From Roseibium limicola (GTDB lineage: Bacteria > Pseudomonadota > Alphaproteobacteria > Rhizobiales > Stappiaceae), in assembly GCF_017313085.1 (NCBI RefSeq), contig NZ_JAFLNF010000005.1:62001-126000 (forward strand): a DNA stretch of 64,000 nt, read 5' to 3'. The position numbers were made by a program, and so were the translations under genes. The notes under the pieces are model-generated. The model was not told the DNA's origin and searched no databases. It worked only from the letters and a program-made list of their open reading frames with translations. Within the stretch, counting starts at the first letter, position 1; the number at the start of each line of letters is the position of its first letter. Positions 1-21,376 of the stretch are shown here, in pieces.

Positions 1-520
1 TTATTCCCTCAGCGGTCCGGTCACGGCGAAAGTCAACTCCCATAAGGCGGGGCCAGTAGCGTCTGGCAGCTTGTGCTTCCAGATTTCCGCTATCCCCGGA
101 CTTCACCCGGAGAGACATTTCCCGAAGATCGTGTGCATTTCGACCCGCCTGTTCCAGAACAAAGGCCTGCGCCATGATTTTCGTCTTGACCAGCTGTGCC
201 CAAAGCCGTTTCGAGACAGGTTTGTTGGCGACTGCCTGGGCTTGCATGCGCAAGCCTTGGGCAAAGTGTCCGGAAACCGGCCAAATGACCGCAGCCGGTG
301 TCTGGCTGTCATTACAAATGATCACCGGGACGTTGGCGTCTGCCAGCCGGGAACAGATATTTGCCGAGAGACTGGCTCCGTGACCACGAATGACTAGTCC
401 GGCGATATCGTCAATGGCAATTTGTCCTACCGTTTTACTTTTTAGGCTGAGTTTCAGAAATCCGCGGGACACGCTGATATGGACCCCATCTGATACGATT
501 TCGACAATCCGGTTGTGCAT
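1..520 (-). CDS. cas1: Cas1 (type II-C), 3' end missing
   Basis: This is the CRISPR adaptation integrase subunit, which works with Cas2 to insert spacers. I translated it by hand from an ATG at 520-518 on the minus strand; 173 codons stay open to the window edge. The protein begins MHNRIVEIVSDGVHISVSRG and shows the N-terminal beta domain (about 1-80), then the helical domain. LEAQAARRYW places E148 at the first conserved metal-binding glutamate of the family; the later His and Asp/Glu ligands lie off the window. A strong GAGGAGGAA Shine-Dalgarno site precedes the start. The start is 57 bp downstream of the cas9 stop on the same strand, the usual cas9-cas1-cas2 order. Nothing in the visible part is broken. 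Confidence 0.9.
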   Translation of the reverse strand, partial: MHNRIVEIVSDGVHISVSRGFLKLSLKSKTVGQIAIDDIAGLVIRGHGASLSANICSRLADANVPVIICNDSQTPAAVIWPVSGHFAQGLRMQAQAVANKPVSKRLWAQLVKTKIMAQAFVLEQAGRNAHDLREMSLRVKSGDSGNLEAQAARRYWPRLMGVDFRRDRTAEGI

Positions 521-577: not shown

Positions 578-3500
578 TTAATTGTGAATCTTTACCCTTC
601 CTGAAGGCGAGACAGTGACTTGATGGGTATTAAGCTTCTGCAAGACTCCGGGTGCCTTTGTAATATACGCAAGGTCGTCTTTTGCATCTCGCGTGCGCGC
701 ATCTACATTTGCTTCTAAGTGTTCAGCCAAGCTAATTTTTCCGGTCGTGAACTTGGCCACTTGAGCAATCAAGCGCCGCCCCTCATGTTCAAACTCTAGA
801 TAATCCCCTTTACGCAGCCGCAGGATCAGTGGCTGGCCCTTCCGTCCGATTTTGGTGCGCCACCATTGCGGATCGGTTCGCGCCAATTGATAGGCTTCAA
901 ACGTGGAAATCACCTCTCCGGTCCACTTGCTTTTGCTGTCGGCCCAGATGTCGTAACAATAATTGCCATCCCCTTTATAGGCCTTGTAGGGCTTTCCGCT
1001 GTCGTCTGAAAACGTAATGACATTCATCCGTTCTTCGATGCGGACCTTGTAGACTGGAGGCTTCATTGCGGACGAAACCTCCAGAAGCCTGGCCTTGAAC
1101 TCTGCGCCGGTCAGGCCGACCGTGGCCTCAAGCAAAGCTAAGCGCAAAGCCGGGTCACGGATCTTCTCCAGACTTTCGGGTGTTTTGAATGCATCGCTAT
1201 CAAGAGGCTTACGGGTCACGACTGGCCGAATGCCCTTTTTGTCAGGAACTCCATTCGGCCCTTGCACCAGGCCATAGGCCGTGTCGTTGTGCATGGCGCC
1301 TTGAATGCCGTGGTCAGGCTTGTGGCTAACGATCATTTTTCGGACCGTTTCTGCAACCTCGTCTCTGAAACCAGGCCACGGGTCCGGCGTATCCGCCAGC
1401 AGTCGGCGGGTGTGTTCCTGTTCGCTTTTGGCAGCTGCGCTGGACGCGGCCTGCAGAATGCGACGATCGGTACAGGCACAGACGATTGCATCGATGGCGT
1501 GATGCCGATGGTCATTGCGGTTCTTTTTCTGGTTGGCGGAGGCCTGGTCATTGTGGCCGCGCAGAACACTGTCGAGTCCCCAAGTCCAGCGCAGGTCTGC
1601 GGTCAACCGACCTGTCACGACCCAGACGTGATTTTCGCCACCCTTGTGGCCTGAGCCTCCGTAAAGTGTCTCCAGATAGGCCTTGGCAATCCGGGAAATA
1701 TAACGTGTGTCACCAAGTTGTCGGGCCAGAAAACCGCTTTCTTCAGCTTCAAAGCGGTTCATGGCATCGGGAGAAAAACGCCAAATTTTGCCCGGGGGAA
1801 GATCAGCTGCCCGAGCAGAGAGATCTTCCCAATCATATCCTGCTGGCGATGTTCCAAACGCCTCAAAGGGAGTGCGGTTTCCTTTGTCGCGATTGGCTTG
1901 GCGTACACACAGGGTTTTGTTCGACAAGCTGTCGTCGAGGGTACGTGAAAACGGCAGGATATGCTCGATTTCGATCTGGTCGGTGAACAGCTCGCTGAGG
2001 CCGATCTGGCGCCCGCTGAACACGCAGCGCTTGCCGAGCGCGTCCAGCTCGTCATAAAGGCGAAGCCTCAATCTGTTTTCGTAGCTGTCCTCGATCGGAG
2101 GTGAAAATTCCGATGCCAAGCGGTGTCGCAGCCTGTCGTTGGCGTCCTGATTCTTCTTCTGTTGCGCCTCCAGCTCGGTTTTGCCCTTGGCCGACAGAGG
2201 CAGGTCACGGGCCAGTTCCAGCACCACCTGATCAGGTGCACCGAACCGGCGGATGAGATCGTTGACAACAGCGCGCACTTGGTTGAGTGCTACATGTACT
2301 GTCGGATTGGCGATCTTGCCATAGCGGATCTCGTCCGGGTCATCCGGCTTTCCTGAGCCGAAGGCGACCGACCGCTCCAGGGCCATGCCGTAATAGGGCA
2401 GCCCCTCATCGAAGACCTCTCCAGTCCCCAGCTGACTATGACTCCCAAGACCAGCCAACTGGACAGCTTCGGAATAGGGAACTACGGCTTGCTCAAGCTC
2501 CGGTAGGATGTGATCGATTGCCGCCTTGCTGAGGTTACCATGGCCGTCGGGCAGAGGGCAGTCAACGACACGGATAGCCTTATCGCGTTCGATTCCATGC
2601 CTCGTGCAAAGCCAATCGAGGAGAATGTTCTCGTCTTCATCCTCAAGCAGCCTGAGCACGATTTCGTCCTGCTCGATGAGCGGTAGATCAAGCCAGCTCG
2701 GCCCCCAGCGATCACCCTGAATGAGTCTGGCGGCCGTCAGGTCTCCGTCAAGGTGTTTGCGTTTATCTGTTTCAGTATTGAAAGGATCGTAAAGCTCGAT
2801 CCCTTTCAATTTGCGGATTTGGTCGAATGTCACCCGGCCGGTTTTGTTGCTCGGCCGCAGCAGACGCTCCGCGATCTTGTTCCGTTGGCTGGTCGTCAGA
2901 CCTTGACTTGGCGCACCGACAGGGGCCGTCCGCAGCGCATTTACCTCTTGATAGATGCGCGCGCGTTGAAAGGACGGCAGCGCTTTTGGAGCCCGTTCTT
3001 CGTTGGGCAATAGAGTGCACCGGCCGACAGGCTGAGGTTTCAGGGGGTGCTGCCATTCGATGGTATCGCGCAGTTCTGCCCAAGCAGTGTCCGCGAATGC
3101 TTCCGGACTGTGACTTTTCTGCGCCCCCCAGATTCGATCAAATTCCTCCAGAACCAATGTCCGGGTCGGGTAATAATCGTATTGGGCCTGGGAACCGGTA
3201 CCGGATTTCCGGACACGAGCCAGTGGTTGCGGCTTTCTCTTGCCACGCTCAGCCTTGGAATTGTGCTCAAGCGCCTCCAGGCGGGGGCGCCCGAACAACT
3301 CACCGAGGGTACGTGCGCCTTCAGCCTTCAAACGCTCGAGAGTCCGCTTTGTTGCCTCATGAATCATACCGCTGTCGGAGATGCCTCGGTCTGCTTTGCG
3401 GTTTGATTTGAAGCCGCGGCGTTGATGCAGATGGAATATCGCCCGTCCGATCTGGTGCGGATTGAGGGGGGAATCCAGTGCCCGGCAACGCAGGATCCAG

Positions 3501-3829
3501 GGATCGCTGTCTTGCAAGGGCGTGCTTGCTCCGCCCTCCAAAGCTTTTCTTGCCGCAGGATCTTCCGGAAACAGGCCATGGGCAATCAACTGGCGTATTA
3601 GCCGCGCTTGACGACGCTCGGTACGGTCACGATTTTTCCTAGCCGCTCTAGGTTCCCGCCGTTTTGCAGCATTGGACTGCTTGTCTTTCGGATTACGTCC
3701 ATCCGAAAAAATCCGGACGCCGCAATCCACAAGTCCGCAGGGGACCAGAACACCACTGTCTTCTGCCAGCTCCAGCGCTGCCCATCCGAGTGAGTTCGAT
3801 CCAAGGTCCAATCCAAGACGCCATGCCAT
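578..3829 (-). CDS. cas9: Cas9 RNA-guided endonuclease, type II-C
   Basis: This is the effector of a type II CRISPR system, which cuts DNA matched by crRNA:tracrRNA. At 1083 residues it has the compact size usual for II-C. RuvC-I is at the N-terminus (GLDLGSNSLGW, D8). An arginine-rich bridge helix spans about 56-80. RuvC-II contains VVLELARDL (E538). The HNH motif is IEIEHILPFS with H623, and N637 lies in DSLSNKTL. RuvC-III is NDHRHHAID with H777 and D780. All residues needed for both nuclease sites are therefore present. The C-terminal part from about 900 would hold the PAM-interacting region. The start ATGGCATGG has only a weak AAGAG site upstream. The gene diverges from the tracrRNA candidate and is followed by cas1. 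Confidence 0.97.
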   Translation of the reverse strand: MAWRLGLDLGSNSLGWAALELAEDSGVLVPCGLVDCGVRIFSDGRNPKDKQSNAAKRREPRAARKNRDRTERRQARLIRQLIAHGLFPEDPAARKALEGGASTPLQDSDPWILRCRALDSPLNPHQIGRAIFHLHQRRGFKSNRKADRGISDSGMIHEATKRTLERLKAEGARTLGELFGRPRLEALEHNSKAERGKRKPQPLARVRKSGTGSQAQYDYYPTRTLVLEEFDRIWGAQKSHSPEAFADTAWAELRDTIEWQHPLKPQPVGRCTLLPNEERAPKALPSFQRARIYQEVNALRTAPVGAPSQGLTTSQRNKIAERLLRPSNKTGRVTFDQIRKLKGIELYDPFNTETDKRKHLDGDLTAARLIQGDRWGPSWLDLPLIEQDEIVLRLLEDEDENILLDWLCTRHGIERDKAIRVVDCPLPDGHGNLSKAAIDHILPELEQAVVPYSEAVQLAGLGSHSQLGTGEVFDEGLPYYGMALERSVAFGSGKPDDPDEIRYGKIANPTVHVALNQVRAVVNDLIRRFGAPDQVVLELARDLPLSAKGKTELEAQQKKNQDANDRLRHRLASEFSPPIEDSYENRLRLRLYDELDALGKRCVFSGRQIGLSELFTDQIEIEHILPFSRTLDDSLSNKTLCVRQANRDKGNRTPFEAFGTSPAGYDWEDLSARAADLPPGKIWRFSPDAMNRFEAEESGFLARQLGDTRYISRIAKAYLETLYGGSGHKGGENHVWVVTGRLTADLRWTWGLDSVLRGHNDQASANQKKNRNDHRHHAIDAIVCACTDRRILQAASSAAAKSEQEHTRRLLADTPDPWPGFRDEVAETVRKMIVSHKPDHGIQGAMHNDTAYGLVQGPNGVPDKKGIRPVVTRKPLDSDAFKTPESLEKIRDPALRLALLEATVGLTGAEFKARLLEVSSAMKPPVYKVRIEERMNVITFSDDSGKPYKAYKGDGNYCYDIWADSKSKWTGEVISTFEAYQLARTDPQWWRTKIGRKGQPLILRLRKGDYLEFEHEGRRLIAQVAKFTTGKISLAEHLEANVDARTRDAKDDLAYITKAPGVLQKLNTHQVTVSPSGRVKIHN

Positions 3830-4002: not shown

Positions 4003-4100
4003 GCATTTAGCACTCTGGAAAAGTCGGGCTTTCCGTTAACAAGGATTTAGTCCACTAAATGCGGAATGGCTCGTTCTCCGGAACGGGCCATTTCTTTTTT
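4003..4100 (+). ncRNA. Candidate tracrRNA of the type II-C system
   Basis: The tracrRNA pairs with CRISPR repeats and is bound by Cas9. The strand opposite cas9 carries no gene here, yet there is a perfect-looking intrinsic terminator, so a short plus-strand transcript is expected. From 5' to 3', 4006-4041 reads ATTTAGCACT...CCGTTAAC. Its reverse complement is exactly 36 nt, starts with GTT and ends in GTGCTAAAT, the size and style of II-C repeats. AAGG follows directly, as in known tracrRNAs. A nexus-type hairpin (ATTTAG-TCCA-CTAAAT, 4045-4060) contains TAGTCC. The terminator hairpin (4065-4092) and a T-rich tail end it. The array is outside the window, so the anti-repeat is a prediction. 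Confidence 0.75.
4065..4100 (+). terminator. Intrinsic terminator of the tracrRNA
   Basis: A 12-bp stem (4065-4076 with 4081-4092, one U-G wobble) closes a TCCG loop and is followed by TCTTTTTT. It is oriented on the plus strand, where there is no protein gene upstream. Confidence 0.85.
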
Positions 4101-4319: not shown

Positions 4320-5486
4320 ATGAGCAAGCAACCCCACCCATTTGAGATCTGCGCCGCTGACCCGGTCGCCCTGACGCCCGAGATGACGTCTGAGATGGCG
4401 GCTGGGAAGACTGGTGGAAATCAGTCTGGCATCTGGATCCGGCTGATCCCGGCGGGCAGTTTCAAGGCCCGCGATGGCCGTGGGCCGTTTGACGCGGGCG
4501 ACCAGACCGCCATGCAGGCGATCGTTGCCCGGACCAAGGATTATCTCGGCGGAACGGACATGATGATTGATTATGATCATCAGTCGGCCTTTGGCGCTAT
4601 TCCAGGTGTTGGCGGCACGGCCAAGGCTGCTGGCTGGGTCAAGGGCTTCGATGTTCGCAAGGACGGTATTTATGGCCGGGTGGACTGGACCGCTGCCGCC
4701 AGGGCCGCGATCGAAGCTTCGGAATATCGCTACATTTCTCCGCTGTTCACCCGCGACACGGCGGGCCGGGTCACGGCCCTGCGCAATGCGGCGCTGTTGA
4801 ACATGCCCGCGATGGATCTTGAGGCTATTGCCGCCCGTGCTTTTTCTCTTCAAACCAAAGGACCCGACATGGATGAGATCCTTGAAGCTCTTGGCCTGGC
4901 CAAGGGCGCGGGGGACGGGGAGGCGCTGGCTTCCATCACGTCCCTGACAACTGGCCTCAGCGCCATTGCCTTGGCCGCCGGGCTCGACAAGAGTTCTGAT
5001 GCGAAGATCATCGCGGCCTCGGTGGCTGATCTGGCGAAGGCGTCAAAAGCCAATCTGGCCCAGTCTGATCCTGTGAAGCCCGATCCGGCAAAATATGTGC
5101 CGATTGAACAGGTCACGGCCCTGCAGGCGGATCTCGCTTCCTTGCGCGATACGGTTGAGACCGACAAGGCCGAAGAGGTGGTTGCCACTGCCATCGAGAC
5201 CGGCAAGCTGCCCCCGGCGCTGAAGGACTGGGGCCTGTCCCTGGCCAAGTCCAACCTGACCGCCTTTGAGGCCTTCACCGCCGGAGCGCCGGTCCTGACC
5301 GGGACCCAGCTTGGCAGTCAGAAAAAGGCCGAGGGCGATGATGCTGACGATGCCGATCCGGCACTGATTGCCGCTGCTGCCACCGCTCACCAGAAAAAGC
5401 TGCTGGAAGCCGGTCAGGAGATCGACTTCGCCGCTGCTGTCGCTGCCGTGCAAACACTCCAGCTCAAGGGGGAGCTCAAGACATGA
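4320..5486 (+). CDS. Mu-like prophage I protein (head protease/scaffold)
   Basis: This resembles the Mu gpI family, a head maturation protease whose C-terminal part serves as scaffold. The first half contains MIDYDHQSAFG and EYRYISPLF, typical of this family. The second half (from about residue 180) is Ala/Lys/Asp rich and likely helical, as expected for scaffold. I chose ATG 4320 (388 aa, MSKQPHPFEI) over the GTG at 4284; neither start has a clear ribosome site. The stop overlaps the next start as ATGA. In Mu-type phages this gene follows terminase, portal and minor head genes, and none of those is present upstream. Confidence 0.85.
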   Translation: MSKQPHPFEICAADPVALTPEMTSEMAAGKTGGNQSGIWIRLIPAGSFKARDGRGPFDAGDQTAMQAIVARTKDYLGGTDMMIDYDHQSAFGAIPGVGGTAKAAGWVKGFDVRKDGIYGRVDWTAAARAAIEASEYRYISPLFTRDTAGRVTALRNAALLNMPAMDLEAIAARAFSLQTKGPDMDEILEALGLAKGAGDGEALASITSLTTGLSAIALAAGLDKSSDAKIIAASVADLAKASKANLAQSDPVKPDPAKYVPIEQVTALQADLASLRDTVETDKAEEVVATAIETGKLPPALKDWGLSLAKSNLTAFEAFTAGAPVLTGTQLGSQKKAEGDDADDADPALIAAAATAHQKKLLEAGQEIDFAAAVAAVQTLQLKGELKT

Positions 5487-5919: not shown

Positions 5920-6894
5920 ATGGCACCGAACCGTCCCTTTACTGTCGATCCGATCCTGACCGCGATTGCGATCGGCTACCGCAACCCGTCCCAGACCCTG
6001 ATCGCCGACGATGTTCTGCCGCGCGTTCCGGTCGGTGCGGAAAAATTCGCCTGGACCGAATATCCGCTGGAAGAGGCCTTCAACATTCCGGACGGCCGGG
6101 TCGGTCGTCGTGGTCGGGTCCAGCAGCTGGAGTGCGGCGGCACGGAAAAGACCGACGAGGTCGAGGACTTTGGCTTCGAGTCGCCAATCCCCTATTCGGA
6201 CATCGATGCGGCCTCGGAAGCGCGCAGCCGGAAGGTGTCAAAATTTGATCCGGAAGGCCATGCGACCATGATGCTGACGGACACGCTGGCCAATGTGCGC
6301 GAGGTGCGTGTTGCGGGCATGGTTCACAATGCAGCCAATTATGCGCCTGCGCGGCAGGTGACCCTGGCGGGCACGGACCAGTTTTCCGACTATGCCAATT
6401 CGGATCCGATCGGGGTTCTGAAAACCGGGCTGGAATCCACCCTGATCTTTGCGCCCAACACGCTGGTGATGGGCCGGGGCGTCTGGTCGAAACTGTCGTC
6501 CCACCCGAAGATTGTCAATGCGGTGAAGGGCAATCTGACCGAAGAGGGCATTGTCACCCGGCAGCAGTTCCTGGATCTGTTTTCCAGTGAAGGGATCTCG
6601 AAAATCCTGGTCGGGGATGCCTGGTACAACACGGCCCGTCCGGGGCAAGACGTCAACCTGGCCCGGGCCTGGGGCAATCACCTTGCCCTGTTGCATCTCA
6701 ACCCCATCGCCAACCCGCAGGGCGGCGGCATCACCTTCGGCTTTACGGCCCAATACGGCAGCAAACTGTCGGGCCGGATCTAGGACAAGGATGTCGGCCT
6801 TCAGGGCGGTGTGCGCATTCGCACCGGCGAGCGGGTCAAGGAGCTGATCGTTGCCAAGGACGTTGGCTACTTCATCCAGAACGCAGTTGGTTGA
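5920..6894 (+). pseudogene. Major capsid protein, interrupted by in-frame TAG
   Basis: The protein resembles the HK97-fold major capsid proteins of Mu-like alphaproteobacterial phages (LIADDVLPRVPVG near the N-terminus, FGFTAQYGSKLSGRI later). The frame stops at TAG 6781-6783 after 287 codons. It then continues in the same frame as DKDVGLQGGVRIRTGERVKE to TGA 6892-6894, which is the normal C-terminal strand and helix of this family. One base change (for example GAG to TAG) would explain the lesion. The last 37 residues are normally part of the folded core, so the truncated product is unlikely to assemble. Amber readthrough or a sequencing error cannot be excluded. Confidence 0.85.
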
Positions 6895-6904
6895 GGAGAC
6901 TTCC

Positions 6905-7285
6905 ATGGCCCGTAAACCCAAGACAGCCACCACGCCCAAGACAGCTGCCACTCCCAAAACCGCCACAGCGGCAACAACAGCGACAGTGGCCCCCAAGACA
7001 GCCCCTGCCAAGCCGGAAACGGCAGCACCAGAAACGACGTTAGAAACGGCCCAGGACAAGACTAATCCTGCGACCACGACGACAGAACCGGACACAAGCG
7101 GTCAAATTGAGCAACCGAGCAAAGACGAAGCGCCGACTACAGTTCCGGCAATCGTGATGCTGCCGCTCCGGCGCAACGGGGTGTCTCACGGGATCGGTGA
7201 TCCGGTGGAACTGCCGGACGCCGAGTTCCGGAAGCTTGAAGGCCAAGGTGTCGTTCAGCGTGTTGTTCAGGCTGCAGAGGATTAA
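6905..7285 (+). CDS. Small phage protein with low-complexity Thr/Ala/Lys/Pro N-terminus
   Basis: A 126-residue protein is preceded by GAGGAGAC. Residues 3-70 are made of degenerate KTATTPKTAATPKT-like repeats, likely disordered. The C-terminal 40 residues (LPLRRNGVSHGIGDPVELPD) look like a small phage domain often found between capsid and head-completion genes. I do not recognise a specific function. A longer frame from 6851 exists, but the ATG at 6905 has the good ribosome site. Confidence 0.6.
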   Translation: MARKPKTATTPKTAATPKTATAATTATVAPKTAPAKPETAAPETTLETAQDKTNPATTTTEPDTSGQIEQPSKDEAPTTVPAIVMLPLRRNGVSHGIGDPVELPDAEFRKLEGQGVVQRVVQAAED

Positions 7286-7292
7286 GCTGCTC

Positions 7293-7724
7293 ATGGCTTA
7301 TGCAACCCGGCAGGATCTGATTGATCGGTTTGGCGAGGACGAGCTAATCCAGCTCACCGACCGGGTGAACCTGCCTGCATCCACCATCGACGAGGACATG
7401 GTTGCAGCCCATATCGCGGATGCGGAGAACCTGGCGGACAGTTATCTGGCCAAGCTCTACCGGCTGCCGCTGGATCCGGTGCCTGCTGTTCTGACCCGGA
7501 TCATTTGCGAGATTGCCCGGTATTTCCTGCATGGACGGCGAACCGACAAGGACGACCCGGTGACGCGGGACTACGCCCTAGCGATTGCCTGGCTGAAGGA
7601 TGTGGCCAGAGGCACGGTGCAGCTTGAGGCCGAGGGAGCCGCATCCAGCCAGACAAGTGGCGGTCAGGTTCAGGTGTCTGCACCGGATCGGGTGTTTTCC
7701 CGTGACACGCTTATTGGATTTTAG
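7293..7724 (+). CDS. Mu gp36-like head-tail protein (DUF1320)
   Basis: A 143-residue protein starts MAYATRQDLIDRFGEDELIQL, the characteristic N-terminus of the DUF1320/Mu gp36 family, thought to act in head-tail joining or head completion. It is mostly helical, followed by a Ser/Gln-rich tail. ATG 7293 is preceded by a poor ribosome site. The gene ends in a TAG that is a true stop, followed 8 bp later by the next gene. Confidence 0.8.
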   Translation: MAYATRQDLIDRFGEDELIQLTDRVNLPASTIDEDMVAAHIADAENLADSYLAKLYRLPLDPVPAVLTRIICEIARYFLHGRRTDKDDPVTRDYALAIAWLKDVARGTVQLEAEGAASSQTSGGQVQVSAPDRVFSRDTLIGF

Positions 7725-7732
7725 GGATCGTT

Positions 7733-8341
7733 ATGGCTGACACCACCCCCTTCATCACCATTGAAGATGCCCAAATCAATGCGGCCCTGAGCCGCGTTGC
7801 CGAGGCAGGAGGAGAGACCGGTGCGCTGATGAACGAGATCCAGGCGGCAATGCTGTTTTCCGTGCAACGTCGATTTGAGACAGAAAGCGCGCCCGATGGC
7901 ACGCCCTGGCAGCGCCATGCGCCAAGGACTGCAAAGGCGAGGGCAAAACGGAAAACGCATGGTCGTTCAGGGGGCACTGGCCCGATCACACCGAAACTAC
8001 TGAGAGAGACGAACCGGCTCTACAAGTCGATCAGCGGCGAGGCCACGAAGACCGAGGCGTCTGTGGGAACCAATCTCGTCTATGCCGCGATCCACCAGAC
8101 GGGCGGCACGGTCACCCAGTATCCCCAATCGCGGAAAGTGAAGTTCCGGAAAGTCGGAACGCAGACACTCTTTGCCAAAAAGGCCCATAAGCGTGCCTTC
8201 GAGAAGCCGGTGACCTTTGGTGAGCGGACCATCGTTATACCGGCAAGGCCCTATCTGGGGTTCTCCGACGAGGACCGGGCAACGATCCTGGTGATTGCCG
8301 AAAACCACTACAGCGCCATCACGGATGGGGGTCTTTCATGA
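7733..8341 (+). CDS. Phage virion morphogenesis protein (Mu gpG-like)
   Basis: A 202-residue protein of the phage virion morphogenesis/tail completion family (Mu gpG type). DGTPWQRHAPRT is the typical WxP(L/R) region, and LVYAAIHQTGGTV is the conserved YAxiHQxGG motif. HK97-gp10-like proteins of this kind join tail to head. The stop overlaps the next start by ATGA at 8338-8341. Confidence 0.85.
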   Translation: MADTTPFITIEDAQINAALSRVAEAGGETGALMNEIQAAMLFSVQRRFETESAPDGTPWQRHAPRTAKARAKRKTHGRSGGTGPITPKLLRETNRLYKSISGEATKTEASVGTNLVYAAIHQTGGTVTQYPQSRKVKFRKVGTQTLFAKKAHKRAFEKPVTFGERTIVIPARPYLGFSDEDRATILVIAENHYSAITDGGLS

Positions 8342-8766
8342 CCCTCGTGCGCGATATAATCGCTCGGTTACTGGAGCTTCAAACGGTCTTTAAAACGGTC
8401 GGGGGAGCTGCGGATTTCTCTCTGATCGAAAAGCGTCGCTCCGGAACACCTGCCGCCTATGTGATGGTGGCGGATGAGGCCAGCGGTGAAAACGAGCGCG
8501 TCACTGGGCGCATTCTGCAGCGCCTTGAGACGGATATCGCTGTCGTCATCGTCACCGACAATCTGAGCGGTGCCCGGATGGGGCAGGCTGCCGATGACAT
8601 TGAGGGCCTGAAGGCCTTTGTCCGCGCGCGTCTGATCGGTTTTGAACCCTCTGATGCTGCTGAACCCGTCAGCCACATTTCCGGGGATCTGATCAAGGCC
8701 CATGGCGGCGCGGTCTGGTTTGAGGACCGCTATTCCGTCCCGACCTACCTGGAGGAACAGCCATGA
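8338..8766 (+). CDS. Mu gp37-like tail terminator protein
   Basis: A 142-residue protein directly after the gpG-like gene, where Mu-like and other long-tailed phages carry a tail terminator. The N-terminal helix (VRDIIARLLELQTVFKTV) and the strand RLETDIAVVIV fit that fold. It likely caps the tail tube before head joining. It overlaps both neighbours by 4 bp, so the three genes are probably translated as a coupled set. Family assignment is by order and likeness. Confidence 0.65.
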   Translation: MTLVRDIIARLLELQTVFKTVGGAADFSLIEKRRSGTPAAYVMVADEASGENERVTGRILQRLETDIAVVIVTDNLSGARMGQAADDIEGLKAFVRARLIGFEPSDAAEPVSHISGDLIKAHGGAVWFEDRYSVPTYLEEQP

Positions 8767-9113
8767 CCTATGAGCCGCGAACAGGTGGCCGCTACATCCG
8801 CGATCCGAAGACGGGGGAGCGGGTGCGGGAAGAAAAAAAGCCTGGTCGGCTTTTGGAGCGGGCAGAGCCCGCAGCAGATGCGCTGGATCCCCGGATCAAG
8901 TCCGGGGCAGGCTCCGGATCTCGCGATGCGGCTTCGCCACACGCGGTCCGGGATGACGGCGGAGTTTTAGGCGCGGCTACGCCCAAACCAAAGCCATCAA
9001 GGAAAAAGAACCCGAAGCCAAAGGCGTCGCAAGGCCAAGCGGCCGTCGCGGTCAATGCCGCGCCCCGTCTGGAGGACAGCGCAACGCGCGGCACGTCCGT
9101 GAAGACATCATAG
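8763..9113 (+). CDS. Small basic phage protein carrying an in-frame palindromic repeat
   Basis: A 116-residue, Lys/Arg/Pro/Ala-rich protein with no recognised domain. The first 30 residues (YIRDPKTGERVREEKKPG) look phage-like. The middle (ALDPRIKSGAGSGSRDA and what follows) is the translation of a chromosomal palindromic repeat, see 8886-8960. The original gene was therefore probably shorter, with the repeat inserted without breaking the frame. It overlaps the tail terminator gene by 4 bp and ends in TAG. Confidence 0.55.
   Translation: MTYEPRTGGRYIRDPKTGERVREEKKPGRLLERAEPAADALDPRIKSGAGSGSRDAASPHAVRDDGGVLGAATPKPKPSRKKNPKPKASQGQAAVAVNAAPRLEDSATRGTSVKTS
8886..8960. repeat. REP-like palindromic element inside a phage gene
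   Basis: CCCCGGA-TCAAG-TCCGGGG (8889-8907) is a perfect 7-bp stem, followed by a second GC-rich imperfect palindrome up to about 8960. The translation LDPRIKSG (and GLDPGI on the other strand) is the familiar signature of dispersed palindromic repeats in many alphaproteobacterial genomes. The edges are approximate. Confidence 0.6.
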
Positions 9114-9125
9114 GAGACCTAATCC

Positions 9126-10052
9126 ATGCGCAAGTTCAAGAAGCTCGCCTGTCTCGCGAAGATCGAGACGGTCTATGGCACGGACAGTGTTCCCCTTGCC
9201 GCGAATGCCATCCAGCTCAGCGATGTGACGCTGACACCGCTGGCGGGCGAAGACGTTTCCCGCGATCTGCTGTTGCCCCATCTGGGTCACCAGGGCATCG
9301 AGCTGACCGGGAATTACATGCAGCTGGAGTTCGCGGTGGAATGTGCCGGCGCAGGCAGCGCCGGTGATGTGCCAGGCTATGGGGTACTGCTGCGGGCCTG
9401 CGGTCTGTCCGAGACCATCGATCCGGGTGTGTCGGTTGTCTATGAACCGGTGTCGGACGGCGAGGAAGCGGTCTCGATCTATTATCATCATGACGGCGTC
9501 CGTCATGTTGCCCTCGGGTGCCGGGGAACCTTTCAGGTGGAGTTTGCCCCGCGCCGGATCCCGCGTTTCAGGTTCAACATCATGGGACTGCTTGGAACCG
9601 TCACCGATCAGGCACTTCCTTCTGCGGATCTGTCGGCCTTCCAGAAGCCGGTCCCGGTCTCCAAGGCACAGACCAGCCTGTCACTGCATGGCGCGCCCCG
9701 GATTGCCGAGAGCATCTCGATTGATCTGGGCAATGCGGTCGAGCCGCGCTTTCTGATCGGCGATGAGCGCATGCAGCTGACCGACCGGCAAAGCATCGGC
9801 ACGGCGGTGGTCGAGGCCAAGTCCATGGCGGCGATCAACTGGTTCGACGTGGCGCAGGCCAAGACGCTGGACGCGCTTCAGGTGGTGCATGGAACCGCCG
9901 CCGGTCACATCGTTCAGGTGGATGCGCCGAAGGTTCAGATCGGCCGGCCAAGCCAGGGCCAGAGCCAGAACCAGAACATCCTCAACTATTCCCTGCCGCT
10001 GATGTTCGTGCCCGATGCCGGGGACGACGAGCTGGTGATCACTGTGAAGTAG
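9126..10052 (+). CDS. Phage major tail tube protein
   Basis: A 308-residue beta-rich protein placed between the tail terminator and the tail-assembly chaperone, as in long-tailed phages. It begins MRKFKKLACLAKIETVYGTD, typical of siphovirus-type tube proteins, where ETxYGTD is recurrent. The assignment rests on this motif, on size and on order. The TAG stop at 10050-10052 overlaps an AGGAGG ribosome site (10051-10056) that originally served the next gene. No sheath gene follows, so the tail is of the flexible or GTA kind, not the contractile Mu kind. Confidence 0.75.
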   Translation: MRKFKKLACLAKIETVYGTDSVPLAANAIQLSDVTLTPLAGEDVSRDLLLPHLGHQGIELTGNYMQLEFAVECAGAGSAGDVPGYGVLLRACGLSETIDPGVSVVYEPVSDGEEAVSIYYHHDGVRHVALGCRGTFQVEFAPRRIPRFRFNIMGLLGTVTDQALPSADLSAFQKPVPVSKAQTSLSLHGAPRIAESISIDLGNAVEPRFLIGDERMQLTDRQSIGTAVVEAKSMAAINWFDVAQAKTLDALQVVHGTAAGHIVQVDAPKVQIGRPSQGQSQNQNILNYSLPLMFVPDAGDDELVITVK

Positions 10053-10059
10053 GAGGTAC

Positions 10060-10324
10060 ATACCAATGCCCGGATATAGGAACGCATTTGATGGTGCCAA
10101 ATCGGCGACCCGGCAAGGCGCGCCGCGCGGCGCGGCCTGGTTGGCCGGGCAAGCGGGGCAACGCGGACCGGGGCGGCGATTTGGCCCACCGCAGGCCGCG
10201 CTTTCGCGTCCGCCGGACTGTGTCGGCGCACTCGACCGATGCCCCGCATCGCCCTTCGCGCGCCTCCGAGCCGGCAGACGCGCCAAGCGCGGTCAAATCC
10301 ATTCCTCTATCCGGGCATTGGTAT
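10060..10324. mobile_element. MITE-like element with about 34-bp inverted repeats
   Basis: The left end ATACCAATGCCCGGATA (10060-10076) is repeated inverted at the right end (10308-10324). The similarity continues inward for about 34 bp with four mismatches. The 265-bp element holds no gene. AT at both outer ends fits a 2-bp target duplication. Removing the element restores AGGAGG-TAC-ATG, so it inserted between the ribosome site and the start codon of the next gene. It is probably a non-autonomous transposon derivative; the mobilising family is unknown. Confidence 0.8.
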
Positions 10325-10709
10325 GATCATGCAATTCCGCCTGTCAGACACATACGCCTTCTGGTGGCCGGTGACGGTCAAGATGCCGGATCCGGATAAG
10401 CCCGGGAAGGTTCTGGACCAGAGTTTTGAAGCCCAATTCCTGATGATCGGCAGCGAGCGCCTTGCCGCCCTCGATGGCGAAGGCGGTGACCAACACGCGG
10501 TCCTGAAGGAGGTCTGGACGGACTGGCGCGGGGTCGAGGATGAGAACGGATCCGAAGCCGAGTTCTCGGATGAGGCCCGCGATCGTTGTCTCGACTATGC
10601 CCATGTGCGGCTGGCGCTTTACACCGCCTACCTCGAAGCCAGCAGTGGCCGGCCATCGCATAGTGGGCAGACGGGCCAAAACACTCAGGCACCAAAGGTA
10701 AAAAACTGA
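10323..10709 (+). CDS. Tail assembly chaperone, upstream frame (lambda G-like)
   Basis: A 128-residue protein between the tail tube and the tape measure, the position of tail-assembly chaperones. It starts at ATG 10323 or 10329, immediately outside the inverted-repeat element. The AGGAGG site that belonged to it is now about 265 bp away, and no replacement is visible, so expression should be poor. The last codons read GTA AAA AAC TGA and contain an A AAA AAC slippery sequence in the correct phase for a -1 shift into the next frame. The role is to hold the tape measure during tail assembly. Confidence 0.7.
   Translation: MIMQFRLSDTYAFWWPVTVKMPDPDKPGKVLDQSFEAQFLMIGSERLAALDGEGGDQHAVLKEVWTDWRGVEDENGSEAEFSDEARDRCLDYAHVRLALYTAYLEASSGRPSHSGQTGQNTQAPKVKN
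10700..10706 (+). promoter_or_regulatory. Programmed -1 frameshift site A AAA AAC
   Basis: The heptamer sits in zero phase as X XXY YYZ, one codon before the TGA at 10707-10709. A -1 slip continues as CTG ATG GCG GCC, the frame of the 10709-11080 ORF. This mirrors the G/GT arrangement conserved in long-tailed phages. Confidence 0.75.
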
Positions 10710-11080
10710 TGGCGGCCGCGCGGGCCTGGGCCTTCGCCCGGCGCGGCCTCATTGATCCGGAGCAGAGCCAAAGTCTCGACCAGGACACGGCCTCAGACTT
10801 TGAGGCCCTGGGCGTCGCCGTTCCCGCTGCTGAGATCAGTGAGCCTGAAGCCTTTGATGTCTGGCGCTGCAACTGGCGCAGCGTGACCGCCTTTCTGTCT
10901 TTGGAGACCCAGTGGCGGGTGGCTGCGGGGCCAGCTGGGTTTGCCTTTCTGGGACTGGATTACACAGCAGCCAAATCTGCCTTCAGTGGCCGCAGCCGGC
11001 GCGCCTGGCAGAACCTGTTGGCGGATCTCCAGATCATGGAGCGTGCAGCCCTGCCTATATTGAACGGGGAACCCGCATGA
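10709..11080 (+). CDS. DUF1799-like phage protein; T-like extension of the chaperone
   Basis: A 123-residue Ala-rich protein resembling the DUF1799 phage family. It lies in the -1 frame relative to the preceding ORF and begins on its stop codon (TGATG). It may be made as a G-T fusion through the slippery site at 10700-10706, by re-initiation at the ATG, or both. In other long-tailed phages the extension recruits tail tube and tape measure. It overlaps the tape measure start by 4 bp (ATGA). Confidence 0.65.
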   Translation: MAAARAWAFARRGLIDPEQSQSLDQDTASDFEALGVAVPAAEISEPEAFDVWRCNWRSVTAFLSLETQWRVAAGPAGFAFLGLDYTAAKSAFSGRSRRAWQNLLADLQIMERAALPILNGEPA

Positions 11081-13302
11081 CCCTTCAGCTCAAGATGCTG
11101 GCCAGTCTGGATGCTTCCGGGGTGGAACGCGGCGCGCAGGAGGCCCAGAGACATCTGCGGCTTGTCGGCAGCGAAGCAACGAAGACGGGCGCACGGCTTT
11201 CTCAGGCGCTTGATGCGCAGTTCGGCATTGGCGGCGCACCTGCTGCGGACCGGGCGCGTGACATCGAGGCCTATGGCGCTCAGCTGGATGAACTGCGAGC
11301 CAGGTTCAATCCTCTGTTTGCCCTGCAACGCCGTTACGAGGCGAGCGTCAAGGAGATCAGCGACGCCCACAAGGTTGGTGCGATCAGTGCCAAGGAGGCT
11401 GCAAACGCCACCGCGCAGGCAACCGGCATCTACAAGGCGCAACGGGCAGCGCTCGCAGGATCATCCCAGGTTCTGAGCAGGTTCGGGTCCTCCACCAAGC
11501 TGGCTGCCAGCGAAGTCAATATTCTGGGCCAGCAGTTTGCCGATGCAGGTGTCCAGATTGCGTCCGGCCAGTCGCTCTTTACGGCTATTCTGCAACAGGG
11601 AAGCCAGGTCCAGTTCATGCTCGGATCCAAAGGCGTCAATACAATCGGCGGATCGCTCCGCATTCTCAAACAAGGTCTGATCGGTTTTCTGAACCCGATC
11701 AATCTGGCTCTGGTCGGACTGGCCAGTGGCGCCGCTGCCGCATCCGCGCTTTATCAGGCAGTCGCCAATGACGACACGGCCGAGGACGCTCTGGAGACCC
11801 AGAACGAACTGATCCGGCAGATGGCCGAACGCTACAAGGATGTTAAGGCAGCCCTTGATCAGCTCGACCGCTCGCCGACGCTGACCAACATCACGCTCGA
11901 CACGGATGACCTGGAACAGCAGCGCGATCTGCTTCAGGGTTTGATCTCAGAGATTGAAGACAGCGTTCAGCGGAGCCTAAGGCTAGAAGCAAATGCGCTG
12001 ACGGCCCTGGCCGAACCGCTGACGGAAGATGCGGCCTTGTTCCGCGACTTCCAAGATGAGCTGCGGGCAACGGCCGATCAATTCATCAACGCAGAGGCAG
12101 GAGCCGATCAGCTCATTGCCCGGCTGATTGAACTTGCCAGAACCGCACCGGACACGGAGAGCGAACAGGCGATCCGGGAGATCATCAAGGAAGCCAGGCA
12201 GGCCGACACCGGCTTGTTCGATCTGGTCAAGCGGCTGAATGAGGTAGAGGCCTCCCTGCGCGGTGTGGATGCCGCAGCCAGTGCCATCGGTGCGCTTTCA
12301 CCAGCGGCCAACGACAGGATCAGAGCCACGTTCGGGATCTTCGACGAACAGACCGCACGCGAACGTCTGGCAGCACAGCTAAGGCCGCGAACAAAGGGCA
12401 AAACGTCAGACGCCGATCGCCGGGTCGAACGAACGCAGGACCTGTTGCGCAACCAGAATGAGGAACTGGCTCGTCTGCGGCTGGAGACCCGTTTGATTGG
12501 AAGCACGGATGCGGCCCGTGCCAAGGCCCTTGCGACACTCGAAGCAGAGATCCAGATCCGCGACCTAGGCATCAATGCGCTCGGATCGGAGGCCGAAGCC
12601 ATTCGGGCCAATGCCCTGGCGATTGCCGACAGCATCGACACACTTGAGCAGAACCAACAGGCCTGGGACACCGTCCGCTCAGCCGGGACAAGTGCGATCG
12701 ACACGCTGGTGGATCGACTGGCGAGTGGCGACCTTTCCGGTGCCATCCAGGCAATCACCTCTGACCTCTCCCGAATGGTCGTGATGCTGGGCGCGGCCAA
12801 TCCTTTGAAGAACGCGCTCTTCGGCAGCAACCTTCCGACGCTGTCGTCAACCGGAGGACTGCTGTCCGGATTGTTTGGCGGTGGTTCTGGTGGCCTGTCG
12901 TCTGCGCTCGGTGCAGCAACCTTCGGTCTTTATGACATCGGCGGGGCAACGCCTGCCGGCAACGACAATGACATCGCCGGGTTTGTCCATAGGAACGAAT
13001 ATGTCTTCGATGCCAGGTCCACCCGGGCCATCGGCGTGCCGGTACTGGAGGCCATGCGCAAGGGAGCTCTCAAGGGCTATCAGTCCGGAGGCCTGGTCAC
13101 CACAGACCCGATGAACCTACCAGGGATAGGGACCGAGTCAGGCCGAACAACACCGCAAGTCCGTCACCAATTTCAACCGGACAGCAGCGGCAATGTCACC
13201 ATCAACATCACCACGCCGGACGCCCAGAGTTTCCGAGCCGCCCGCACCCAGATCGCTGGTGAGTTCGCACGCCTGACCGCACGTGGGCAGCGGGGGATGT
13301 AA
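11077..13302 (+). CDS. Phage tail tape measure protein
   Basis: A 741-residue protein that sets tail length and is ejected with DNA. It is largely helical and Gln/Ala/Leu rich. A hydrophobic segment lies at about 205-230 (GFLNPINLALVGLASGAAAA), long coiled-coil-prone stretches at 250-560, and a Gly/Ser-rich region near 590-640. It resembles the prophage tape-measure family and is far shorter than lambda gpH-type proteins would predict for a very long tail. I chose ATG 11077 (MTLQLKMLASLD), which overlaps the preceding stop; the frame is open further upstream without support. Confidence 0.85.
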   Translation: MTLQLKMLASLDASGVERGAQEAQRHLRLVGSEATKTGARLSQALDAQFGIGGAPAADRARDIEAYGAQLDELRARFNPLFALQRRYEASVKEISDAHKVGAISAKEAANATAQATGIYKAQRAALAGSSQVLSRFGSSTKLAASEVNILGQQFADAGVQIASGQSLFTAILQQGSQVQFMLGSKGVNTIGGSLRILKQGLIGFLNPINLALVGLASGAAAASALYQAVANDDTAEDALETQNELIRQMAERYKDVKAALDQLDRSPTLTNITLDTDDLEQQRDLLQGLISEIEDSVQRSLRLEANALTALAEPLTEDAALFRDFQDELRATADQFINAEAGADQLIARLIELARTAPDTESEQAIREIIKEARQADTGLFDLVKRLNEVEASLRGVDAAASAIGALSPAANDRIRATFGIFDEQTARERLAAQLRPRTKGKTSDADRRVERTQDLLRNQNEELARLRLETRLIGSTDAARAKALATLEAEIQIRDLGINALGSEAEAIRANALAIADSIDTLEQNQQAWDTVRSAGTSAIDTLVDRLASGDLSGAIQAITSDLSRMVVMLGAANPLKNALFGSNLPTLSSTGGLLSGLFGGGSGGLSSALGAATFGLYDIGGATPAGNDNDIAGFVHRNEYVFDARSTRAIGVPVLEAMRKGALKGYQSGGLVTTDPMNLPGIGTESGRTTPQVRHQFQPDSSGNVTINITTPDAQSFRAARTQIAGEFARLTARGQRGM

Positions 13303-20106: not shown

Positions 20107-20331
20107 ATGAACGAAATCAGATGTGCAGGTTGCCGCAGGCTCTTGCTGAAGTCCGCTGACCGAGCGATAGTCGGTCCGGTTGATATCAAGTGTCCGCGTT
20201 GCGGCACGATGAATTCCCTGAGGCCATTGGTCATAGAACCAACAGAGCCCTTCTCCGATCGCCACGAGCGAACAGAAACCGGAGAATGCTCTTGTGGCTC
20301 TACATCCCGAAAGAATGCCTCAGCGGCTTAA
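20107..20331 (+). CDS. com: Com-like zinc-finger translational regulator (Mu type)
   Basis: A 74-residue protein beginning MNEIRCAGCRRLLLK, with two CxxC pairs (C6/C9 and C29/C32 in KCPRCGTMN), matching phage Mu Com. Mu Com binds the mom mRNA and opens the mom start site for translation. Here com overlaps a cytosine methyltransferase gene instead of mom. ATG 20107 has an AAGG site. The C-terminal GECSCGS adds two further cysteines. The stop at 20329-20331 lies inside the methyltransferase reading frame. Confidence 0.85.
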   Translation: MNEIRCAGCRRLLLKSADRAIVGPVDIKCPRCGTMNSLRPLVIEPTEPFSDRHERTETGECSCGSTSRKNASAA

Positions 20332-21197
20332 CGGACTTTCCCTCTGCGCCGGCGTTGGAGGACTGGAGCTCGGACTCCATGTCGCAGAACCCGGATATCG
20401 AACTGTTTGTTATGTTGAGCGAGAAGCCTGCGCAGCGGCCACCCTCGTGGCGCGGATGGAAGACCAGGCCCTGGATCACGCGCCTGTGTGGGACGATGTT
20501 AAGTCCTTCGACGGCCGCCCGTGGCGTGGAAAGGTTCATATCCTCTCTGCCGGCTATCCCTGTCAGCCGTTCTCGTCTTCCGGTAAGCGGCGGGGCAGGG
20601 AGGACCCGCGTCACCTCTGGCCGGACGTTGCCCGGATTATCGGAGAGAGTGAACCCGAATGGGTCTTCTGCGAAAACGTCGAGGGACATCTGGACCGTGG
20701 ATTTGAGGAAGTCGCCGGAGACTTTCAGGCAATGGGTTACAGCCTCAAAGCGGGATTGTTCTCGGCGGCTGAAGTCGGCGCGGCCCACATCCGGAAGAGG
20801 CTCTTCATACTGGCCCACGCCAACAACAAGCCTCTACTGCTCCCGGACCGACATCCTGATCGAGGAGGGCGCCCTTCGGTTCAGGACCGCCACCGACCAG
20901 AACGGCAACCAGCACGCGATCGGCAATGCGGCCCGGGTCTGGACGACGTTCTGGCTAACGATGAAGGGGATGGGTTTGAAGCCCCTTCAAGACCCGATTT
21001 ACCCGTCTTCGCGCCCGCTCCATGTGACCTTGAAGCCTGGGACACGCACCTGTCCCGGAGACTGGACCTTCAACCCGAATTTTTCGGACTGGCTGATGGG
21101 CTGGCCAATCGGGTGGAGCGATCCAGGGCAGCCGGTAACGGGGTGGTCCCGTTGGCAGCAGCTTATGCGTACCGAACTCTCAGGGCTGGGTATCTAG
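20286..21197 (+). CDS. Overlapping ORF in a second frame of the methyltransferase gene
   Basis: The +1 frame relative to the methyltransferase is open for over 300 codons (ATG 20286, MLLWLYIPKECLSG). Its 3' third is strikingly protein-like: WPTPT from residue 176, NPNFSDWLMGWPIGWSD near 265-280, then a W/R-rich end. Similar WPTPT...WxMGxP-type proteins are, as I recall, common next to or over phage Dcm genes. Codons such as GAC ATC CTG ATC GAG GAG GGC suggest selection in this frame. It may be a real overprinted gene or a conserved shadow; no function can be given. Confidence 0.5.
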   Translation: MLLWLYIPKECLSGLTDFPSAPALEDWSSDSMSQNPDIELFVMLSEKPAQRPPSWRGWKTRPWITRLCGTMLSPSTAARGVERFISSLPAIPVSRSRLPVSGGAGRTRVTSGRTLPGLSERVNPNGSSAKTSRDIWTVDLRKSPETFRQWVTASKRDCSRRLKSARPTSGRGSSYWPTPTTSLYCSRTDILIEEGALRFRTATDQNGNQHAIGNAARVWTTFWLTMKGMGLKPLQDPIYPSSRPLHVTLKPGTRTCPGDWTFNPNFSDWLMGWPIGWSDPGQPVTGWSRWQQLMRTELSGLGI

Positions 21198-21217
21198 TAA
21201 GGGAAGGGGGAGGCTAG
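20294..21217 (+). CDS. Phage DNA cytosine-5 methyltransferase
   Basis: A 307-residue m5C methyltransferase, probably protecting phage DNA from restriction. Motif I is LSLCAGVGGLELGL, motif IV SAGYPCQPFS with catalytic C90, motif VI CENVEG, motif VIII HIRKRLFILA and motif X AAGNGVVPLAAA. The target recognition part (about 175-265) is short. The start is GTG 20294 (GGAG 9 nt upstream) or ATG 20315; both overlap com. A second long frame (20286-21197) overlaps nearly the whole gene. From about 20820 the third-position GC is clearly higher in that other frame than in this one. It occupies the place of mom in Mu. Confidence 0.88.
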   Translation: MALHPERMPQRLNGLSLCAGVGGLELGLHVAEPGYRTVCYVEREACAAATLVARMEDQALDHAPVWDDVKSFDGRPWRGKVHILSAGYPCQPFSSSGKRRGREDPRHLWPDVARIIGESEPEWVFCENVEGHLDRGFEEVAGDFQAMGYSLKAGLFSAAEVGAAHIRKRLFILAHANNKPLLLPDRHPDRGGRPSVQDRHRPERQPARDRQCGPGLDDVLANDEGDGFEAPSRPDLPVFAPAPCDLEAWDTHLSRRLDLQPEFFGLADGLANRVERSRAAGNGVVPLAAAYAYRTLRAGYLVREGGG

Positions 21218-21248: not shown

Positions 21249-21294
21249 TGCCATTCGTTCTTGCGCGAAATGCCATCCGAACTTGCGCGCTACA
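21249..21294 (+). mobile_element. Right end of the Mu-like prophage
   Basis: Two adjacent 22-bp direct repeats, 21249-21270 and 21271-21292, match at 17 of 22 positions; both contain TGCCAT and CTTGCGCG. They are followed by CA (21293-21294). Tandem transposase-binding repeats ending in CA are the hallmark of Mu-type phage ends. The flank continues as GTTGG, which would be the 5-bp target duplication. No inverted counterpart (left end) is in the window. Confidence 0.75.
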
Positions 21295-21376
21295 GTTGGC
21301 TCTGCATGGTGCAGGCGCATAAGGCCGCGTTTCTCAGCGAGTCTCGAAACGATAGGGCATAAGCCCTTGAAAAGTT

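What the first reader, a model, noticed from the sequence alone, without database searches (positions are those of the whole stretch)
4003..4100. A tracrRNA gene, with a prediction of the unseen CRISPR repeat
A plus-strand intrinsic terminator stands in a gap with no plus-strand gene. Just upstream are AAGG, a hairpin with TAGTCC and, before that, a 36-nt segment (4006-4041) whose reverse complement starts GTTAACGG and ends GAGTGCTAAAT, the size and style of a II-C repeat. A promoter-like pair ends 7 nt before it. The order matches known tracrRNAs. It predicts that the array outside the window has 36-nt repeats pairing with this segment, with a bulge likely at the internal GGAAA/TTTCC.
Basis: partly seen in the sequence, partly recalled or inferred. 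Interest (0 to 1): 0.7.

Follow-up and report, generated by a model that had tools for sequence, protein, structure and literature searches.

The report
CRISPR guide-RNA gene inside a prophage
The predicted tracrRNA is real: it pairs almost perfectly with a 27-repeat CRISPR array just outside the window, and the whole CRISPR-Cas9 immune system turns out to be cargo of a Mu-like virus sitting in the bacterial chromosome, at a spot where related viruses carry other anti-virus weapons.

Summary
The tracrRNA call is confirmed, and its prediction came true. The array lies 0.8-2.6 kb left of the window: 27 identical 36-nt repeats. The repeat forms about 30 base pairs with window 4008-4040, the best site among 6460 placements in the 18-kb locus. 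Repeat and anti-repeat diverge together across 18 related loci. Array, cas2, cas1, a cas9 with intact motifs (1083 aa) and tracrRNA make a complete type II-C system. As an RNA gene this is an ordinary family member.

The setting is not ordinary. The system lies inside a 42,980-bp Mu-like prophage with inverted TGTA...TACA ends and a 5-bp target duplication (GTTGG), between head genes F and I. A same-genus genome carries a different, poorly cross-pairing II-C system at the same site in opposite orientation. In other relatives the site holds restriction-modification, a retron, Abi-alpha, KAP or kinase/helicase genes, or little. The F-I gap looks like an exchangeable defence-cargo site that captured CRISPR-Cas9 at least twice. 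Targets are almost unknown, expression is untested, and this copy's capsid gene has an early stop.

The parts
4003..4100 (+). tracrRNA gene (5' end inferred, 3' end at the terminator T-run)
   Evidence: 5' end inferred from comparison with relatives, no RNA data
4008..4040 (+). anti-repeat, about 30 bp with the CRISPR repeat
   Evidence: cofold; best of 6460 placements and cognate-versus-foreign matrix
4045..4060 (+). hairpin after the anti-repeat (nexus-like; AUUUAG-UCCA-CUAAAU, or GGA/UCC at 4043-4053 as in relatives)
4063..4100 (+). intrinsic terminator of the tracrRNA
578..3829 (-). cas9, 1083 aa, RuvC and HNH motifs intact
1..520 (-). cas1 (310 aa; continues left of the window to C13:61588); cas2 (C13:61244-61561) and the 27-repeat array (C13:59417-61170, + strand) follow outside the window
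4320..5486 (+). Mu-like protease I gene, right border of the cargo site (left border: gene F, C13:58429-59214, outside the window)
   Evidence: Mu-like_Pro 3.3e-70; Phage_Mu_F 1.1e-20
5920..6783 (+). prophage major head protein, with an early in-frame stop compared with a relative
21272..21294 (+). right terminal inverted repeat of the prophage (left one starts at C13:40315)
21295..21299 (.). GTTGG, 5-bp target duplication (other copy at C13:40310-40314)

Best explanation
Window 4003-4100 (+) is the tracrRNA gene of a complete type II-C CRISPR-Cas system (array, cas2, cas1, cas9, tracrRNA) that is carried as cargo by a Mu-like prophage. The tracrRNA is made on its own, stops at its terminator, pairs through 4008-4040 with the repeat part of each crRNA, and the duplex loads Cas9, which cuts matching DNA. 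Cas1-Cas2 add spacers at the cas2 end of the array. In the lysogen the system most likely protects the prophage and its host against other phages. It occupies an exchangeable defence-cargo site between phage head genes F and I. Shown: sequence, pairing, co-divergence, gene content, prophage ends, alternative cargo. Inferred: transcription, processing, Cas9 loading, spacer acquisition and the defence role.
For: Array and repeat found where predicted. Duplex -34 kcal/mol beyond the monomers, against about -10 with the repeat or tracrRNA of the other prophage system. In 18 loci the cognate repeat:anti-repeat energy averages -53 against -29 for foreign pairs; cognate is best in 15 of 18; 0 of 10,000 permutations as good. 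The conserved core GTTAACAAG plus terminator lies beside cas9 in relatives. Cas9, Cas1 and Cas2 match type II families and the catalytic motifs are intact. Prophage: repressor, Ner-like gene, MuA-like transposase and MuB-like ATPase, portal, F and I, exact ends and target duplication. A second, different II-C system sits at the same F-I site in G026 (L045). The site varies in relatives.
Against: No RNA data and no convincing promoter. Only 1 of 26 spacers has a plausible target, a 28/31 match in a phage cytosine-methyltransferase gene, and none matches the related Mu-like phages tested. The prophage's major head gene has an early stop, so this copy may no longer make virions. No Cas gene appeared in 80 related viral contigs, so CRISPR cargo is rare.
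Confidence: 0.93

Rival explanations
1. The prophage is dead and the CRISPR-Cas locus is now simply a host immune system that happens to sit in a prophage remnant.
For: The major head gene has an early stop that the close relative L123 lacks.
Against: Both ends and the target duplication are intact, and MuA- and MuB-like genes are long open frames. A second related prophage carries a different II-C system at the same site, so capture by phages, rather than one dead remnant, is the common factor.
Confidence: 0.3
2. The RNA is a different small RNA or only a terminator and regulatory leader, and its match to the repeat is a decayed repeat copy.
For: Stray single repeat copies with anti-repeat-like sequence occur near arrays or cas9 in some relatives.
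Against: Only the stretch 4008-4030 follows the repeat closely; the rest keeps pairing with a loop and a bulge. The core GTTAACAAG, a following hairpin and a terminator are conserved in relatives while the anti-repeat changes together with each repeat.
Confidence: 0.02
3. The system serves RNA-guided transposition of the Mu-like element, like CRISPR-associated transposons.
For: It sits in an element with MuA- and MuB-like genes; Mu-type CASTs of types I-A and V-F are reported (PMC11656645).
Against: Cas9 has its nuclease motifs and the locus has its own cas1-cas2, whereas CAST effectors are interference-defective (PMC11656645). The cas genes are not next to A/B, and no spacer matches the own genome outside the array.
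Confidence: 0.01

Closest known systems
Type II-C CRISPR-Cas9 with tracrRNA (Neisseria / Campylobacter type)
   Same: cas9-cas1-cas2 only, ~1083-aa Cas9, 36-nt repeats, 30-nt spacers, tracrRNA order anti-repeat, hairpin, terminator; array convergent with the cas operon and tracrRNA divergent from cas9 (the match to the Neisseria layout is from my own knowledge); array polarity as described for II-C in PMC12080349
   Different: Carried inside a Mu-like prophage; a possible 5' closing helix of the free tracrRNA (GCAUUUAG with CUAAAUGC) is kept in this clade
Phage ICP1 type I-F CRISPR-Cas
   Same: Complete adaptive system with array and adaptation genes in a phage, at a locus where other strains carry other genes (PMC11656645)
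   Different: Type II-C instead of I-F; 43-kb Mu-like prophage instead of ICP1; targets here unknown, so counter-defence is not shown
P2/P4 phage and satellite defence hotspots (Rousset et al. 2022, PMC9122126)
   Same: One fixed phage locus with exchangeable defence systems
   Different: Those hotspots lack large systems such as CRISPR-Cas according to that paper; here the F-I gap holds 7 kb of CRISPR-Cas9
Mu-like phages Rhodovulum RS1, vB_RhkS_P1, Thiobacimonas vB_ThpS-P1
   Same: Same order portal - F - protease I
   Different: Their F-I gap is short or holds small unknown genes, no CRISPR

Membership tests
tracrRNA of a type II CRISPR-Cas system | anti-repeat complementary to the repeat of the adjacent array | tested here: met
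tracrRNA of a type II CRISPR-Cas system | downstream hairpin(s) and a Rho-independent terminator | tested here: met
tracrRNA of a type II CRISPR-Cas system | co-divergence of anti-repeat and repeat in relatives | tested here: met
   18 loci; relatedness not corrected for
tracrRNA of a type II CRISPR-Cas system | transcribed and bound by Cas9 with crRNA | not testable with these tools
   needs RNA-seq or Cas9 pull-down
CRISPR-Cas subtype II-C | cas9, cas1, cas2 and no csn2 or cas4 | tested here: met
   neighbours on both sides are phage genes
CRISPR-Cas subtype II-C | compact Cas9 with RuvC and HNH motifs | tested here: met
   TIGR01865 4.7e-186; motifs; best solved-structure matches are 1082-1095-aa Cas9 chains
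CRISPR-Cas subtype II-C | promoter inside each repeat | not tested
   not examined; repeat ends GTGCTACAAC
Mu-like transposable prophage | MuA-like transposase, MuB-like ATPase, Mu portal, F, I | tested here: met
Mu-like transposable prophage | inverted ends with repeated end sites and a 5-bp target duplication | tested here: met
   TGTAACGCGCAAG... / ...CTTGCGCGCTACA, GTTGG twice
Mu-like transposable prophage | inducible, virion-forming | tested here: inconclusive
   major head gene has an early stop; induction not testable
CRISPR-associated transposon | interference-defective effector guiding insertion | tested here: not met
   Cas9 motifs intact, adaptation genes present

The most novel reading that the evidence does not exclude
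Mu-like phages of this alphaproteobacterial genus keep an exchangeable defence-cargo site between head genes F and I that has captured complete, mutually incompatible CRISPR-Cas9 systems at least twice, so that adaptive immunity itself moves by phage transposition and serves phage-against-phage competition.
Probability: 0.55. Interest if true: 0.65.

Novelty: new variant of a known kind. Interest (0 to 1): 0.52.

Why it matters
The RNA itself is an ordinary tracrRNA, but a repeat predicted from sequence alone was then found, which is a clean test of the reading. The larger point is where it sits. [quoted passage not shown] A complete Cas9 system with adaptation genes inside a 43-kb Mu-like prophage, and a different one at the same site in a relative, suggests a route by which whole adaptive immune systems can spread, and gives a setting to test whether temperate phages use them against rivals. 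The two systems may also offer an orthogonal Cas9/tracrRNA pair.

Tried and rejected
Rfam search of the 18-kb locus: no tracrRNA family hit; only two weak hits, of which Leu_leader is the hairpin between array and cas2. Spacer targets: phage collection, 201 relatives, 397 genomes of the order and the fetched loci gave one near match, spacer 15. Cas9 relatives in IMG/VR and phage records: none close; one distant 26% hit. Window Cas9 on plasmids: at best 41%. Nearest Cas9 relatives (58-64%, other alphaproteobacteria) show none of the window's Mu genes in the flanks held. A crRNA-triggered switch in which the free tracrRNA hides its anti-repeat was tested by cross-pairing and is not supported within the close clade (p = 0.26). 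Literature searches found no report of CRISPR-Cas in a Mu-like phage morphogenesis region; subscription papers are not covered.

Full report
1. The observation. The plus strand at window 4003-4100 holds, in order, an anti-repeat, AAGG, a small hairpin and a 14-bp terminator with six Ts. The RNA folds far better than shuffles (z = -6.6). The promoter claim is weak: the scanner finds a 9-of-12 pair ending at 4006, and such matches are not evidence.

2. The prediction. The window lies at G000:C13:62001-126000. The stretch to its left (L002) holds a CRISPR array at C13:59417-61170: 27 repeats of 36 nt, all identical (GTTGCGGTTGGCCTGACTTTTCCAGAGTGCTACAAC), with 26 spacers of 29-31 nt. Then come cas2 and cas1 and, in the window, cas9, all on the minus strand. 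The repeat pairs with 4008-4040: 23 continuous pairs, a UU/UU loop, 3 pairs, a one-base bulge, 4 pairs. Of 6460 placements in the locus, this site is best (-52.4 kcal/mol; mean -20.0, sd 4.2; next unrelated site -43.5, antisense to cas9).

3. Relatives. Cas9 relatives with 58-64% identity come from other alphaproteobacteria (Devosia, Emcibacter, Rhizobiaceae, Marinicaulis, Sneathiella). Cas9s of the window's own genus and family are only about 37-39% identical in BLAST alignments (40-42% by the search). Nearly all have an RNA beside cas9 with the core GTTAACAAG and a terminator. One relative (L010) has exactly the window's repeat. In 18 loci with both parts, the cognate repeat:anti-repeat energy averages -53.0 against -29.3 kcal/mol for foreign pairs; the cognate is best in 15 of 18, and the three exceptions lie within groups of similar repeats; 0 of 10,000 permutations did as well. 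This co-divergence is the strongest evidence that the RNA is the working partner of the array. Relatedness of the loci is not corrected for.

4. The system. Cas9 matches TIGR01865 (4.7e-186) with RuvC-I, RuvC-II, HNH and RuvC-III motifs present. Cas1 matches the type II form and Cas2 matches its family. No csn2 or cas4 is present, so subtype II-C. A strong hairpin flanked by A and T runs lies between the last repeat and cas2, as expected between converging transcripts. According to PMC12080349, II-C arrays gain spacers at the last repeat, here the cas2 side; in L045 the degenerate repeat lies at the opposite end, which fits.

5. The setting. The genes on both sides are Mu-like phage genes: small and large terminase, portal (Portal_Mu 6.2e-109), F (1.1e-20), then the CRISPR locus, then protease I (3.3e-70), head, neck and tail genes. 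Left of these are a repressor, a Ner-like gene, a MuA-like transposase and a MuB-like ATPase. The element has inverted ends, TGTAACGCGCAAGAACGGATGGC from C13:40315 and GCCATCCGAACTTGCGCGCTACA ending at C13:83294 (window 21294), each with a second internal copy of the site, and a 5-bp target duplication GTTGG on both sides. It is therefore a Mu-like prophage of 42,980 bp, about 7 kb of it CRISPR-Cas. A tRNA-Pro and host genes follow.

6. The second case. Genome G026 of the same genus carries a related prophage (tail 92%, F 73% identity) with another complete II-C system between F and I, but with a Cas9 only 37% identical, a different repeat and the opposite orientation (L045). Its tracrRNA and repeat do not pair well with those of the window (-10 against -29 to -34 kcal/mol beyond the monomers). 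These are best read as two separate captures at one site.

7. The site. In other same-genus prophages the F-I gap holds, mostly in reverse orientation, a protein kinase with a UvrD-like helicase (the closest prophage, L123), a methylase with an AAA-type restriction protein (L127, L128), a retron I-C reverse transcriptase (L130), Abi-alpha (L126), a DUF900 hydrolase (L125) or unknown genes (L124), or very little (L129). Of 80 related viral contigs, 59 span the gap; 12 have more than 1.5 kb there, including methylase, reverse transcriptase, KAP NTPase, AAA and HEPN/Toprim genes; none of the 80 has cas genes or an array (L152 and L153 carry ORFs of the same lengths and starts as the L127 and L130 cargo and may be the same strains). 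Two cultured Mu-like phages have a short gap. I read the gap as a defence-cargo site in which CRISPR-Cas is one rare payload. The defence role of these genes is inferred from family names.

8. Function. The likely role is immunity of the lysogen against rival elements. Direct evidence is thin: of 26 spacers only spacer 15 has a plausible match, 28 of 31 bases in a cytosine-methyltransferase gene of a Klebsiella phage and at one place in a genome of the order. No spacer has a convincing match in the Mu-like relatives or in the own genome outside the array. Rivals are a decayed prophage whose CRISPR locus now serves only the host (the head gene has an early stop) and, very unlikely, guided transposition.

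9. Known or new. The tracrRNA is a regular member of its family by every feature that could be tested. Phage-borne complete CRISPR systems (ICP1) and phage defence hotspots (P2/P4) are known (PMC11656645, PMC9122126). A complete Cas9 system as exchangeable cargo in the head-gene region of Mu-like prophages, twice, was not found in the papers searched; that is absence from an open-access library only.

Noticed in passing
L045 (G026:C1), 6397-11800: A second, different type II-C CRISPR-Cas system (Cas9 37% identical, 9 repeats, first repeat degenerate) lies between the same two genes, F and I, of a related Mu-like prophage, in opposite orientation.
   Followed up: yes
L123-L130, L152, L153, L168, L171, L224, L225 (gap between Mu F and Mu I): The F-I gap of related Mu-like prophages is a variable cargo site with restriction-modification, retron I-C, Abi-alpha, KAP, HEPN/Toprim and kinase plus UvrD-like helicase genes, and several long unknown ORFs (593, 467, 421 aa) that may be new defence genes.
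   Followed up: partly
window 4003-4010 with 4055-4062: The tracrRNA 5' end GCAUUUAG pairs with CUAAAUGC after the hairpin; the helix is kept in the close clade, with changes on both sides in L007, L011 and L012, so the free tracrRNA may be closed end to end. In the window it competes with the hairpin at 4045-4060.
   Followed up: partly
window 5920-6890: The major head protein gene has an early in-frame stop well before the end of the frame seen in the relative L123; this prophage copy may be unable to form normal capsids. An intact copy exists in the relative.
   Followed up: partly
window 20318-21217: A C5-cytosine methyltransferase gene lies at the right end of the prophage, while spacer 15 of the array nearly matches a methyltransferase gene of another phage (not this one).
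   Followed up: partly
L064 8769-11328 (C13:40769-43328): Left prophage end outside the repressor: minus-strand genes including a 497-aa protein with a weak HEPN/RES N-terminal match (below the curated cut-off), perhaps a second cargo site.
   Followed up: no
L010 14646-16199: A Rhizobiaceae MAG has a repeat identical to the window's although its Cas9 is only 64% identical; the repeat is conserved more than the protein, or repeats were exchanged.
   Followed up: no
window 1081-1140: A GC-rich stretch antisense to cas9 pairs with the repeat at -43.5 kcal/mol, the second best site in the locus; probably composition.
   Followed up: no
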